Source of the DNA: Lampris incognitus
Taxonomy: Eukaryota > Chordata > Actinopteri > Lampriformes > Lampridae
Direction: 5' to 3'
NCBI RefSeq assembly: GCF_029633865.1
Contig: NC_079214.1
Span: 16,966,753-17,030,752, forward strand
Length of the DNA: 64,000 nucleotides
Shown here: piece by piece, positions 9,854 to 54,873 of the stretch
Position numbering within the stretch: the first letter of the stretch is position 1
How the letters are laid out: every line of letters begins with the position of its first letter
Translations under genes and position numbers: made by a program
Notes under the pieces: generated by a model
What the model was told of the DNA's origin: nothing
Seen by the model: only the letters and a program-made list of their open reading frames with translations
Databases searched by the model: none

Positions 9854-9988
9854 ATGGAGGCAGAAAGGCTCGCGTACGAAACAAACCGAGACGTGGAGGC
9901 GACTGTGCTGCCCTTATCTGTGATGGCTGAATTGCTGGAGGATGGAAACGGAACCACTGGAAACCAGTTCCAACAGCCAAGCTGGCAG
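9854..9988 (+). CDS. tacr2: tacr2 coding exon 1: extracellular N-terminus
   Basis: Encodes 45 residues from MEAERLAYE to QPSWQ, the receptor N-tail with one NGT sequon. The donor is CAG|GTGGGA. The QPSWQ end joins VALWAIAY in the next exon, matching the continuous family motif. M24 (9923) is an alternative start. In mammals this sequence is part of the same exon as TM1-TM3. Confidence 0.75.
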
Positions 9989-54100: not shown

Positions 54101-54873
54101 TATATGTGAATGCACTGATGAGCAGTCATAAGAAAACACTGACTTTAAGGGAAGACTCCCGTCAGACTCCAGAGATAATACTGTAAGACTGAATGCTTTA
54201 AATAAGTTTTGCCTTTCCTTGACAAGCACAGAGTCTCGGGCCACCAAGGCAGTTGAGCTCATGACAAGGTATTTGTTTTAACATTCGACTGAAGTAAGCA
54301 TCAGCTCAAAAGCCAGGCGTAGCATGAAGTATGTGTGGCTGTCAATCCTGAAAACCCTGTAGAAAACTGAAATCCGAGCACCGAACAGCAAGCACAACCA
54401 TCTGATAATCATGCCCAGTGTTGTTTTAATCCTACCAGCAGATTTCAAGATAAACCCGCTGCAGCTGATAAACCAGGCCTTCTACCAACAGACACGTGGT
54501 CCGCAGCTCATGCAATAACACGACCTTTTTCCCTCTGCAGTGAGACATACTGCAGTACCTGTTGTACAACGTGGTTTTACTATATCGAGACTTTGAATCA
54601 GATGGTGTAGTTCAGTTTTTAGCAAGTACTGACATTGCACCAGAGTTCACCGAATTTTCCTCTTAGTGAAAACTCCAGGTCGTGTGCGGGTTTAGAGTCA
54701 AAACACCAACCTGAGCCATCAGGGATTGAGCACACAAATGTCGGCAGCATCTTCACCGTGGCGGTGGGGTTAGTGTCGTGGCCCAATCCGCTGACAAGCT
54801 CCCTGCGAAACCGCTGCATGATGTCTTGCAGCGTCTCATCCGAGAACCGCATGGAGTACAGGTATTTATCAAT
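33027..54873 (-). CDS. hk1: Hexokinase 1-like, two-domain 100-kDa hexokinase (first coding exon not found)
   Basis: Phosphorylates glucose with ATP to glucose 6-phosphate, the first step of glycolysis; in the HK1 family the N-terminal half is regulatory and the C-terminal half catalytic, with the missing first exon providing mitochondrial binding. Twenty exons encode 897 residues plus stop; about 21 more from exon 1 would give the usual 917-918. Both halves keep the phosphate loop ([23 protein letters not shown]), substrate loop (FTFSFPC) and the catalytic Asp of NDTVGTMMT. Exon lengths match mammalian HK genes (163, 149, 120, 96, 100, 184, 156, 234, 305 and repeats), except that 234, 305 and 234 are each split by an extra intron. 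The choice of hk1 over hk2 or hkdc1 rests on residues such as DDQRCEVG and KCNV-like [16 protein letters not shown] and on adjacency to tacr2. Confidence 0.88.
33464..33609 (-). CDS. hk1: hk1 exon 17b (146 nt, split exon)
   Basis: [20 protein letters not shown] to [12 protein letters not shown]. 88+146 equals 234. Donor ACA|GTGAGT. Confidence 0.9.
33610..34109 (-). other. hk1: hk1 extra intron 17a/17b (500 bp)
   Basis: Phase 0, between VKE and VCGAVS. Boundaries GAG|GTAATT and TAG|GTATGC. A second stretch resembling the exon 17b border (33690-33725: TCACCCCCACGTAGCTCAGC area) hints at a small internal duplication near the acceptor. Confidence 0.85.
34110..34197 (-). CDS. hk1: hk1 exon 17a (88 nt, split exon)
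   Basis: [20 protein letters not shown] to IIVKE. Same length and homologous split point as exon 9a. Donor GAG|GTAATT. Confidence 0.9.
34472..34627 (-). CDS. hk1: hk1 exon 16
   Basis: 156 nt. [18 protein letters not shown] to TKYLSQIE. Donor GAG|GTAGGA. Confidence 0.92.
34868..35051 (-). CDS. hk1: hk1 exon 15
   Basis: 184 nt. [20 protein letters not shown] to [11 protein letters not shown]. Donor GAG|GTTAAA followed within 10 bp by a (CT)n run. Confidence 0.92.
35189..35288 (-). CDS. hk1: hk1 exon 14: C-half catalytic Asp
   Basis: 100 nt. [19 protein letters not shown] with the catalytic Asp, then [15 protein letters not shown]. Donor CTG|GTTAGT. Confidence 0.92.
35494..35589 (-). CDS. hk1: hk1 exon 13
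   Basis: 96 nt. [20 protein letters not shown] to IKRRE. The acceptor is formed directly by a (GT)n(GC)n run on the minus strand (35590-35630). Confidence 0.9.
36060..36179 (-). CDS. hk1: hk1 exon 12: C-half substrate loop
   Basis: 120 nt. [18 protein letters not shown] to [14 protein letters not shown] (human has CQQ). Donor GCT|GTGAGT. Confidence 0.92.
36844..36992 (-). CDS. hk1: hk1 exon 11: C-half phosphate loop
   Basis: 149 nt. [19 protein letters not shown] to MQGTGEE. Donor GAG|GTAAGA. Confidence 0.93.
38321..38432 (-). CDS. hk1: hk1 exon 10b (112 nt, split exon)
   Basis: [18 protein letters not shown] to [15 protein letters not shown]. 193+112 equals the 305-nt mammalian exon 10. 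Donor CAG|GTGTGA. Confidence 0.9.
38521..39450 (-). mobile_element. LINE 3' fragment (L2/I-like)
   Basis: The minus strand encodes [15 protein letters not shown] and [16 protein letters not shown], the end of a reverse transcriptase region, then a 3' UTR and a (TTA)n tail at 38521-38540. It lies in hk1 intron 10a/10b. Confidence 0.7.
39808..39868 (+). repeat. (CA)n microsatellite
   Basis: About 30 CA units preceded by (CT)n, 27 bp from the hk1 exon 10a donor. Confidence 0.95.
39895..40087 (-). CDS. hk1: hk1 exon 10a (193 nt, split exon)
   Basis: [38 protein letters not shown] to TTEQLLE, spanning the end of the N-half. Donor GAG|GTGGCG; a (GT)n run on the minus strand begins about 25 bp into the intron. 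Confidence 0.88.
40325..40372 (+). repeat. Short 3' end of a common interspersed repeat
   Basis: GATGACCTGCTGTGGCGCCC followed by a GGGAGCAG and GTAGTAG-like tail resembles the tail of a widespread fish repeat. The rest of this intron (40088-41087) shows nothing recognisable. Confidence 0.35.
41088..41233 (-). CDS. hk1: hk1 exon 9b (146 nt, split exon)
   Basis: [20 protein letters not shown] to DGSLYKMHP. 88+146 equals 234. Donor ACA|GTGAGT. Confidence 0.9.
41234..42184 (-). other. hk1: hk1 extra intron 9a/9b (951 bp)
   Basis: Phase 0, between QH and VCTIVS. Its boundaries are CAT|GTGTGT and CAG|GTGTGC. It is AT-rich with ATATG palindromic simple sequence (41770-41890) and short GT runs. 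Confidence 0.85.
42185..42272 (-). CDS. hk1: hk1 exon 9a (88 nt, split exon)
   Basis: [20 protein letters not shown] to CVAVQH. First 88 nt of the 234-nt mammalian exon 9. Donor CAT|GTGTGT. Confidence 0.88.
42430..42585 (-). CDS. hk1: hk1 exon 8
   Basis: 156 nt. [18 protein letters not shown] to KHVSAMEK. Donor GAA|GTAAGC. Confidence 0.92.
42840..42985 (+). repeat. GACA/GATA microsatellite inside a tandem duplication
   Basis: Two adjacent units of about 90 bp (from 42805 and from 42900) each carry AATAAAAATAAATAG, a GACA/GATA run and ATAATATTCTCA. Confidence 0.75.
43094..43277 (-). CDS. hk1: hk1 exon 7
   Basis: 184 nt. [20 protein letters not shown] to [10 protein letters not shown]. Donor ACT|GTAAGT. 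A GACA-type microsatellite lies just upstream of its acceptor (43295-43322). Confidence 0.92.
43418..43517 (-). CDS. hk1: hk1 exon 6: N-half catalytic-type Asp
   Basis: 100 nt. [19 protein letters not shown] to CEVGIIIG. Donor TCG|GTACTA. Confidence 0.92.
43845..43940 (-). CDS. hk1: hk1 exon 5
   Basis: 96 nt. [17 protein letters not shown] to AIKKRG. Human has AI where this has CY at the exon start. Donor GGA|GTGAGT. Confidence 0.92.
44186..44260 (-). repeat. LINE 3' tail fragment, same type as the tacr2-upstream LINE
   Basis: On the minus strand it reads CAATATGAGAATGC, then CCAATAAAGGGAATTGAATT, closely paralleling the 3' end at 9780-9835. Confidence 0.55.
44425..44535 (+). repeat. SINE-like element, family A, plus strand
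   Basis: A-box-like TAGTTGACTGG, B-box-like ATTCGCGTCCC and the conserved CCCCAAATTCACTACA end. Confidence 0.6.
44570..44994 (-). repeat. tRNA-derived SINE, family B, copy 1
   Basis: Full copy with a tRNA-like head at the right (B-box complement GGTTCGAATCC-like near 44935) and an AATTGGGGAGAAAAG 3' end at the left. Flanked by ACCAAACACAAGTTT and ACCAAAAACAAGTTT, a 15-bp near-perfect target duplication. Confidence 0.82.
45111..45230 (-). CDS. hk1: hk1 exon 4: N-half substrate loop
   Basis: 120 nt. [15 protein letters not shown] to [14 protein letters not shown]. Donor GAG|GTATGT. Confidence 0.92.
45354..45502 (-). CDS. hk1: hk1 exon 3: N-half phosphate loop
   Basis: 149 nt. [18 protein letters not shown] to IIHGTGTR. 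The acceptor is preceded by a (CT)n run (45505-45531). Donor AGA|GTAGGT. Confidence 0.92.
46640..46790 (+). repeat. LINE 3' tail fragment
   Basis: Ends CCAATAAACATGATTCTGAT, a tail type common to fish CR1-group LINEs; no coding sequence left. Confidence 0.5.
46793..46937 (-). repeat. SINE family C fragment, minus strand
   Basis: 3' portion only, from the ATGGATGG tail to the middle of the body (CACATTCACACCTAG). Confidence 0.7.
47518..48062 (-). repeat. 5S-rRNA-derived SINE (SINE3-type)
   Basis: On the minus strand the head (48062 down to about 47965) reads like 5S rRNA: CCATACCAAC, then GGAAGCTAAGCAGGTGTGGG, CTTGGCTAGTACTTGGATGG and GAGACC. The body runs to a 3' end with a GTGCTATAGAAATGTAACC block and an (ATT)n tail. 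SINE3 elements of this design are known in zebrafish; this copy is degraded in the centre of the 5S part. Confidence 0.8.
48250..48432 (+). repeat. tRNA-derived SINE, another family
   Basis: A-box-like GTGGCTTGGTTGTTAGCG, B-box-like GGTGTGAATCC, then TAGGACCTTTG and a CCCCCAAAAATCTTTAAAAA tail. Confidence 0.55.
48433..49913. other. hk1 intron 2, no recognisable feature
   Basis: AT-rich, short open frames only (for example 48903-49166) with no family resemblance that I see. Confidence 0.5.
49914..50666. mobile_element. Non-autonomous hAT-type element, 753 bp
   Basis: Perfect 8-bp target duplication CGACTATG (49906-49913 and 50667-50674) and short inverted ends CAGTGTCGGCGC. The subterminal regions are rich in GGGGGC/GCCCCC. 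No intact transposase; a 90-codon open frame (50275-50547) is not recognisable. Confidence 0.82.
51757..51912 (+). repeat. GACA/GATA/GGCA compound microsatellite
   Basis: About 155 bp of tetranucleotide repeats, switching between GACA, GATA and GGCA units. Confidence 0.95.
52087..52408 (-). repeat. SINE family C, minus strand, with internal (CA)n
   Basis: 3' two thirds of the element, including an internal (CA)n of about 90 bp (52241-52330). The tRNA-like head is missing. Confidence 0.78.
52474..54091 (-). mobile_element. Tc1-like DD38E transposon, complete ends
   Basis: Inverted repeats of 27 identical bases (starting CACTACCGTTCAAAAG) with TA target sites at 52472-52473 and 54092-54093. 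Length 1618 bp. It encodes a full-length transposase with one stop codon. It sits in the 9.2-kb hk1 intron 2. Confidence 0.9.
52636..53679 (-). pseudogene. DD38E Tc1-like transposase with one premature TAG
   Basis: Starts [16 protein letters not shown]. The helix-turn-helix [17 protein letters not shown] is intact. A TAG at 53521-53523 breaks the frame after AQTGSN, and the rest (53520-52636) is open. The catalytic triad is visible: [32 protein letters not shown] count 38 residues between the second Asp and the Glu, not 34. Read through the stop, the frame has 347 codons before the end, a normal family length. Confidence 0.88.
54092..54710. other. hk1 intron 2, right end
   Basis: No feature recognised. 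Confidence 0.4.
54711..54873 (-). CDS. hk1: hk1 exon 2
   Basis: 163 nt. [19 protein letters not shown] to [14 protein letters not shown]. Acceptor TTCCCAG, donor CAG|GTTGGT. Followed by a 9.2-kb intron. Confidence 0.92.

What the first reader, a model, noticed from the sequence alone, without database searches (positions are those of the whole stretch)
9854..54873. Five extra introns in two adjacent genes, all phase 0 and all directly before a GT-starting valine codon
Seen: tacr2 Q|V (9989-10760) and Q|V (16081-16206); hk1 H|V (41234-42184), E|V (38433-39894) and E|V (33610-34109). Removing each restores exactly the mammalian exon sizes I know (197, 234, 305, 234 nt; for the first tacr2 exon the split is inside the single mammalian N-tail-to-TM3 exon). 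Every downstream exon starts with GT, so the donor GT is repeated at the acceptor: GTGG/GTGG, GTC/GTG, GTGTG/GTGTG, GTA/GTA, GTG/GTA. Of the 21 conserved acceptors in these genes only two exons start with GT. This is the footprint expected if introns were gained at AGGT-like proto-splice sites by a duplication-based mechanism (inference).
Basis: partly seen in the sequence, partly recalled or inferred. Interest (0 to 1): 0.85.

Follow-up and report, generated by a model that had tools for sequence, protein, structure and literature searches.

The report
Gained introns in opah hexokinase cluster
Genes that are usually cut in a fixed pattern in vertebrates carry extra introns in the opah, a large ocean fish; they look like additions, at least partly shared with other spiny-rayed fishes, rather than relics lost in mammals, and three of them sit at one equivalent spot in duplicated parts of the sugar enzyme hexokinase.

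Summary
In the opah (Lampris incognitus) tacr2 has two and hk1 three extra GT-AG introns, all phase 0, all before a GT valine codon.

They are best read as gains. Every homologous site read in hk1b, hk2, gck, tacr1 and tacr3 of the same genome is unsplit, and GT already stands at 11 of 13 such sites. Three of the five show in predicted proteins of other spiny-rayed fishes, so those are not opah-specific. The adjacent hkdc1 adds three more.

AG|GT enrichment is real here (6 of 8 extra against 3 of 52 conserved introns), but gained introns elsewhere have GT in only 4 of 11 cases, and no intron is demonstrably exon-derived at birth: a duplication mechanism is possible, not shown. The opah genome is 1.48 Gb, so 'genome compaction' seems not required. 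Kind: known (intron gain in fishes); the same-site sharing is the new part.

The parts
9989..10760 (+). extra intron tacr2-1 (772 nt), phase 0, GCAG|GTGG; splits the first coding exon just before TM1; about 330 nt inside it have one other 85% copy in the genome (contig C11)
   Evidence: site unsplit in tacr3 and tacr1; retained-intron-like insert at the same residue in Festucalex cinctus P0252
16081..16206 (+). extra intron tacr2-2 (126 nt), phase 0, GCAG|GTGT; splits the 197-nt exon 4
   Evidence: site unsplit in tacr3 (CAG|GTT) and tacr1; retained-intron-like insert and exact exon skip in Centroberyx P0234, P0260, P0261
41234..42184 (-). extra intron hk1-a (951 nt), phase 0, GCAT|GTGT; splits exon 9 (N-half) as 88+146
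   Evidence: unsplit in hk1b, hkdc1, hk2, gck
38433..39894 (-). extra intron hk1-b (1462 nt), phase 0, AGAG|GTAA; splits exon 10 (link between the halves) as 193+112
   Evidence: site unsplit in hk1b, hk2 and hkdc1 (hkdc1 exon 10 is split elsewhere); apparent read-through into an intron at the same residue in Anabas testudineus P0006
33610..34109 (-). extra intron hk1-c (500 nt), phase 0, AGAG|GTAT; splits exon 17 (C-half) as 88+146, the exact homologue of hk1-a; only its own place matched in the genome search
   Evidence: unsplit in hk1b and hk2; hkdc1 has an intron at the same place
33667..33727 (-). decayed copy of the first 61 nt of exon 17b inside intron hk1-c (41 of 61 identical, ungapped, starts exactly at the exon's first base)
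   Evidence: 0 of 1000 shuffles; best of 78 comparisons on 39 of 42 introns, z 9.9; changes 6/7/7 over codon positions
9854..16821 (+). tacr2 coding region, exons 9854-9988, 10761-11056, 14491-14685, 15564-15714, 15961-16080, 16207-16283, 16560-16821 (411 aa)
33027..54873 (-). hk1 (hk1a) coding region, exons 2 to 18 with the stop codon: 54873-54711, 45502-45354, 45230-45111, 43940-43845, 43517-43418, 43277-43094, 42585-42430, 42272-42185, 41233-41088, 40087-39895, 38432-38321, 36992-36844, 36179-36060, 35589-35494, 35288-35189, 35051-34868, 34627-34472, 34197-34110, 33609-33464, 33174-33030 + stop
   Evidence: P0007 identical

Best explanation
The five introns (with three more in hkdc1) were gained in the neighbouring genes tacr2, hk1a and hkdc1 of a ray-finned fish ancestor: those of hk1 most simply after the teleost genome duplication, and at least three of the five before the opah and other spiny-rayed fishes parted. 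They entered without changing the protein, at codon junctions where GT, in part AG|GT, already stood (shown: position, motif, unsplit paralogs; inferred: order of events). The position shared by the C-halves of hk1 and hkdc1 is best explained by one gain copied to the neighbour during the recurrent gene conversion that keeps exon 17b alike in the two genes (conversion well supported; that it carried the intron is inferred). The same-position intron in the N-half of hk1 is a second gain at the equivalent site. The birth mechanism (break repair, insertion at AGGT, or short duplication) is undecided.
For: Unsplit at the homologous sites: hk1b exons 9, 10, 17; hk2 exons 9, 10, 17; gck exon 9; hkdc1 exon 9; tacr3 and tacr1 exons 1 and 4. 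A tree of 35 rows puts the window gene and hk1b in two supported teleost clades. Exons with an extra intron: 8 of 39 in tacr2+hk1+hkdc1, 0 of 46 in the paralog exons examined, p 0.0013. AG|GT 6 of 8 extra against 3 of 52 conserved, p 4.3e-5. Unsplit homologous sites with AG|GT: CAG|GT (hkdc1 exon 9, tacr3 exon 4), GAG|GT (hk1b exon 10, hk2 exon 17). Other acanthomorphs: Centroberyx, Festucalex, Anabas (lineages 86-88). Conversion: fourfold sites of hk1 and hkdc1 identical in exon 17 25/35 and exon 7 16/20 against 70/209 in 14 other exons; in 14 and in 19 species the within-species excess of hk1-hkdc1 identity is largest in exons 17 and 7 (0 of 10000 permutations each); in opah the tract is 17b, just 3' of the intron (130/146 with hkdc1, 112/146 with hk1b).
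Against: No gar, shark or zebrafish gene structure could be read, so loss elsewhere is argued against only through paralogs. Two hexokinase-like loci on contig C11 were partly fetched and not examined for introns. Introns hk1-c and hkdc1-17 have no detectable similarity, although fourfold sites of the exon are still 71% alike; so the last conversion probably did not carry the intron. No sign of hk1-a or hk1-c was found in predicted proteins of other fishes, a test of low power. Weaker within-species excess also appears in exons 5, 14, 15 and 18 (p 0.005 to 0.04). The hkdc1 exon 15 intron (AAG|GAA, in an expanded loop) breaks the GT rule and is not a precise gain. hk1-a is CAT|GT, not AG|GT.
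Confidence: 0.75

Rival explanations
1. Old introns kept in fishes and lost in mammals: the position shared by hk1-a, hk1-c and hkdc1-17 was an intron of the ancestral single hexokinase domain before it doubled.
For: One ancestral intron would explain three same-position introns at once.
Against: It needs separate losses in hk1b N and C, hk2 N and C, hkdc1 N and gck of this one genome, besides mammals; it does not help the other positions; tacr1 and tacr3 lack both tacr2 introns.
Confidence: 0.1
2. Each intron was born by tandem duplication of an exon piece holding AGGT, the two AGGT copies becoming the splice sites.
For: AG|GT at 4 of 5 sites and 6 of 8 with hkdc1; a copy of 61 nt of exon 17b lies in hk1-c; tacr2-1 has a weak 25-nt match to its upstream exon (z 2.9, 1 of 150 shuffles; two conserved introns reach z 3.0).
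Against: In that model the copy should start at the donor; in hk1-c it starts 382 nt later and spans the acceptor, so it fits a later duplication. The other extra introns tested (six of seven) show no clear copy; age would erase such traces, so this is weak. Outside this cluster gained introns continue with GT in 4 of 11 cases: MC5R/MC2R in opah 2 of 4, serpins 2 of 7 (T. rubripes rows of the table in PMC2746811).
Confidence: 0.2
3. The introns are transposable elements or introners inserted with a GT or AGGT target duplication.
For: Target duplication would also give GT at both ends; tacr2-1 contains about 330 nt with one other copy at 85%, and other parts of tacr2-1 and tacr2-2 match short stretches of other fetched loci.
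Against: hk1-c matched only itself in the 1.48-Gb genome; the tacr2-1 repeat does not reach the intron ends; no similarity among the extra introns was found.
Confidence: 0.08
4. hk1-c and hkdc1-17 are independent gains at the same preferred site rather than one gain and a transfer.
For: hk1-a suggests that this site was hit more than once; the introns are not alike; the target GAG|GTAT is identical in both genes.
Against: Coincidence of position together with conversion of precisely this exon.
Confidence: 0.4

Closest known systems
Intron gains in serpin genes of ray-finned fishes (PMC2746811; abstract, section 7 and two passages seen)
   Different: serpin junctions continue with GT in 2 of 7 T. 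rubripes rows; introns there are 68-178 nt, here 126-1462; no same-site sharing between neighbours in what I read
MC2R/MC5R, P2Y and CHRM3 introns of 'genome-compacted' fishes (PMC3151243; abstract, sections 10 and 12, part 1 of section 14 and passages seen)
   Same: gains in closely linked genes, one at an identical position in both (140c); opah shares introns of MC5R and MC2R
   Different: the authors tie gains to genome compaction, while the opah genome is 1.48 Gb; the phrase 'gene conversion' does not occur in the main text
Tandem genomic duplication of AGGT (review PMC3443670; 10 passages seen)
   Same: AG|GT at the junction
   Different: intron sequence not demonstrably exon-derived
Intron transfer between paralogs (PMC3443670; passages seen; its table lists 3 events, in Mycosphaerella, Aspergillus and Chironomus)
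   Same: paralogs share an intron position beside a converted tract
   Different: no residual intron similarity; here two neighbouring genes of a vertebrate

Membership tests
lineage-specific intron gain of spiny-rayed fishes | site unsplit in paralogs or outgroups | tested here: met
   paralogs of the same genome; outgroup gene structures not available
lineage-specific intron gain of spiny-rayed fishes | gain precise, no coding change at the junction | tested here: met
   five of five in hk1 and tacr2 against unsplit paralogs; not met for hkdc1 exon 15
lineage-specific intron gain of spiny-rayed fishes | shared by other spiny-rayed fishes | tested here: met
   three of five, from predicted proteins only: tacr2-1, tacr2-2, hk1-b; hk1-a and hk1-c no sign
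lineage-specific intron gain of spiny-rayed fishes | host genome compacted | tested here: not met
   assembly of 1,481,484,146 bases
tandem duplication of AGGT | AG|GT at the junction | tested here: met
   4 of 5 (6 of 8 with hkdc1); hk1-a is CAT|GT
tandem duplication of AGGT | intron is a copy of neighbouring exon | tested here: inconclusive
   seven of eight extra introns tested; hk1-c has a partial copy, not at the donor; six no clear copy; age could erase it
intron transfer between paralogs | same intron position in both paralogs | tested here: met
   hk1 exon 17 and hkdc1 exon 17, both 88+146
intron transfer between paralogs | recombination tract at the site | tested here: met
   exon 17b
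intron transfer between paralogs | intron sequences related | tested here: not met
   score 26 against shuffled mean 27.0; could be lost with age
introner / transposon-born intron | many similar copies, ends matching intron ends | tested here: not met
   hk1-c one place only; tacr2-1 one partial copy (first 431 of 772 nt searched); hk1-a, hk1-b, tacr2-2 and the hkdc1 introns not searched genome-wide

The most novel reading that the evidence does not exclude
A vertebrate case of intron spread by gene conversion: one intron gained at a preferred AG|GT site of the hexokinase fold was copied between the tandem genes hk1 and hkdc1 (and perhaps between the two halves of hk1) by the conversion that keeps exon 17b alike, so that local recombination made this gene cluster a hot spot of intron gain.
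Probability: 0.35. Interest if true: 0.7.

Novelty: new member of a known kind. Interest (0 to 1): 0.5.

Why it matters
Intron gain is held to be rare in vertebrates and its mechanism is open. A cluster with eight extra introns in three neighbouring genes, unsplit duplicates in the same genome as controls, three introns at one homologous site, and a conversion tract beside it makes the mechanism testable by comparing a few dozen fish genomes. The large opah genome carrying known MC2R/MC5R gains speaks against compaction as the needed cause.

Tried and rejected
Looked for similarity between the extra introns, and between introns and flanking exons: only the exon 17b copy in hk1-c stands out (in one search three introns over 2500 nt were left out and the hkdc1 exon 15 intron was not tested). 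Considered that copy as proof of birth by duplication; rejected because it spans the acceptor, with weak upstream similarity too (29 of 500 shuffles as good). Considered opah-specific gain; rejected for three of five introns. Considered an opah-specific conversion with known direction (my notebook entry says hk1 to hkdc1); dropped, because all 25 species pairs show high exon 17 identity (0.84 to 1.00). The species test first used 14 of those 25 pairs; left out were Gadus (chimeric protein), five species for which opah hk1 stood in, and Cyclopterus, Larimichthys, Sphaeramia, Mola and Hemibagrus, not chosen by result. Repeated for every exon and with those last five added, exons 17 and 7 stay strongest and exons 5, 14, 15 and 18 show a weaker excess. 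For some species (Megalops) the hk1 used groups with hk1b in the tree. A deletion in Leuciscus (P0314) ends one residue before the tacr2-2 junction; not counted. Literature searches for these introns, intron gain in fishes or conversion of these genes listed no paper on hk1, hkdc1 or tacr2 introns of fishes; the library holds open-licence papers only and I judged by titles and abstracts except where stated.

The AG|GT test pools introns of related genes (hk1b, hkdc1), so its p-value is not that of independent events; without the possibly transferred copy it is 5 of 7 against 3 of 52, p 2.1e-4. The 39 against 46 exon comparison is biased, since some paralog exons were fetched because the window exons were split.
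Full report
What is there. The window lies on contig C5 of a 1.48-Gb assembly. The spliced hk1 protein is identical to NCBI's 'hexokinase-1-like' of Lampris incognitus on a contig of the same length, so the fish is the opah, a lampriform acanthomorph. tacr2 (plus strand) has seven coding exons and hk1 (minus strand) twenty in the window. 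The five extra introns are at the stated places with GT-AG ends, phase 0. hk1-a and hk1-c both cut their 234-nt exon as 88+146: they occupy the same position in the two homologous halves of hexokinase.

Are they gains? The genome holds hk1b (contig C6). In a tree of 35 rows (32 of 120 listed proteins and three opah rows) the window gene falls in one teleost clade and hk1b in another, as after the teleost genome duplication; gar and the two clades meet in an open fork. Exons of the hk1 lengths fit hk1b throughout exons 2 to 17, unsplit. hk2 (C1) is unsplit in exons 9, 10 and 17 and gck in exon 9; the names hk2 and gck are my reading of similarity and domain number. tacr3 (C6) and tacr1 (C1), likewise named by me, are unsplit at both tacr2 sites. 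In the unsplit genes GT stands at 11 of 13 homologous sites: hk1b CAC|GT, GAG|GT, GAA|GT; hk2 AGG|GT, GAA|GT, GAG|GT; gck CTG|GT; hkdc1 CAG|GT (exon 9) and TTG|GT (the hk1-b site); tacr3 CGC|GT and CAG|GT; tacr1 has AGA|AT and CAG|AT. So GT pre-dates the introns; AG|GT is seen at 4 of the 13.

More in the neighbour. hkdc1, next to hk1, has extra introns in exon 10 (ACAG|GTGG), exon 15 (GAAG|GAAG, inside an expanded loop) and exon 17 (AGAG|GTAT, 88+146, the same position as hk1-c). NCBI's opah HKDC1-like protein ends with this model letter for letter. Counting exons, 8 of 39 in the three neighbours carry an extra intron and 0 of 46 in the paralog exons examined, p 0.0013: 17 of hk1b, 17 of hk2, 8 of gck, 2 each of tacr3 and tacr1. 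For hk2 and gck this rests mainly on unbroken tblastn matches; two hexokinase-like loci on C11 were not examined; and part of the paralog exons were fetched because the window exons were split.

Motif. Extra against conserved introns: exon starts GT 7 of 8 against 9 of 52 (p 2.0e-4); AG|GT 6 of 8 against 3 of 52 (p 4.3e-5). AGGT makes up 11 of 74 AGG tetramers in the two coding sequences of the window, yet all four extra introns at AGG lie at AGGT. Against a general rule: in the opah's MC5R and MC2R, whose introns PMC3151243 describes as gains, downstream exons start GTCT, TTTG, GTAT and TTAT (the first from its acceptor side only), and the serpin gains in PMC2746811 have GT in 2 of 7 (T. rubripes rows): together 4 of 11. 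Cluster against these: 7 of 8 against 4 of 11, two-sided p 0.059.

Other fishes. Predicted proteins can betray an intron. Of 98 tachykinin receptor proteins looked at (of 120 listed), Centroberyx affinis P0234 has a 28-residue insert exactly at the tacr2-2 junction that begins with V and ends with Q, as a retained 84-nt GT...CAG intron would; P0260 and P0261 (Centroberyx) skip exactly residues 259-299, the exon between; Festucalex cinctus P0252 has a 25-residue insert of the same kind at the tacr2-1 junction; Coryphaenoides P0265 repeats sequence from exactly that junction. In Anabas testudineus P0006 the hk1 part runs ...TEQLLE and then VSRGICS..., as a read-through from GAG|GT into an intron at hk1-b. 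For hk1-a and hk1-c, 113 hexokinase proteins of several kinds, the seven longer ones and 113 of the hkdc1 search gave no such sign. Centroberyx, Festucalex and Anabas are acanthomorphs. For fishes outside the acanthomorphs nothing was learned either way.

Gene conversion. Between hk1 and hkdc1 of the opah, fourfold sites agree at 25 of 35 in exon 17 and 16 of 20 in exon 7, against 70 of 209 in the other 14 exons compared (exon 15 left out). Across 14 ray-finned species, and again across 19, hk1 and hkdc1 of one species are more alike than those of different species in exons 17 and 7 (0 of 10000 permutations each); of the 15 other exons, four (5, 14, 15, 18) show a weaker excess with p 0.003 to 0.04 and eleven none (first run). 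Relatedness of species can inflate such a test. In opah the excess lies in 17b, immediately 3' of the intron: 130 of 146 with hkdc1 against 112 of 146 with hk1b; 17a shows none (71 against 73 of 88). The introns themselves are not alike. So an earlier conversion may have carried the intron, with later ones refreshing only 17b; or the site was hit twice.

Inside hk1-c. A 61-nt stretch matches the start of exon 17b at 41 of 61 bases, ungapped, from the exon's first base (0 of 1000 shuffles reach it); the next best of 78 exon-intron comparisons has z 3.0 against 9.9. Its changes are spread evenly over codon positions, as in a dead copy. I read it as a tandem duplication across the acceptor after the intron existed. 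Genome-wide, hk1-c matched only itself.

Verdict. The duplication footprint is suggestive and local. New in kind is little; the same-site introns in both hexokinase halves and in the converting neighbour are what deserves follow-up.

Noticed in passing
outside the window, contig C12 24.33-24.38 Mb (L034-L037): Opah MC5R and MC2R carry introns described for 'genome-compacted' fishes, although the opah assembly is 1.48 Gb.
   Followed up: partly
outside the window, hkdc1 exon 15 (L010): A charged, lysine- and glutamate-rich loop with an intron in it; insertions at the same place are frequent among the 113 proteins (21 + 60 entries), and two Centroberyx gerrardi records differ there.
   Followed up: partly
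protein P0032: A protein labelled Lampetra planeri (lamprey) falls among spiny-rayed fish hk1a in the tree; likely contamination or mislabelling.
   Followed up: no
proteins P0143, P0003, P0004, P0006: Gadus 'hexokinase-1 isoform X6' joins an hkdc1-like front to an hk1 back; the others seem to run hkdc1 and hk1 together: read-through transcripts or annotation errors.
   Followed up: no
window 28854-29987 (-) and 52639-53520 (-): Long open frames (378 and 294 aa) that look like Tc1-type transposases (name recalled, not searched).
   Followed up: no
window 10014-10344: Part of intron tacr2-1 has one other copy, 85% alike, on contig C11.
   Followed up: partly
outside the window, contig C11 55.20-55.43 Mb (L023-L027): Two further hexokinase-like loci; their identity and introns were not worked out.
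   Followed up: no
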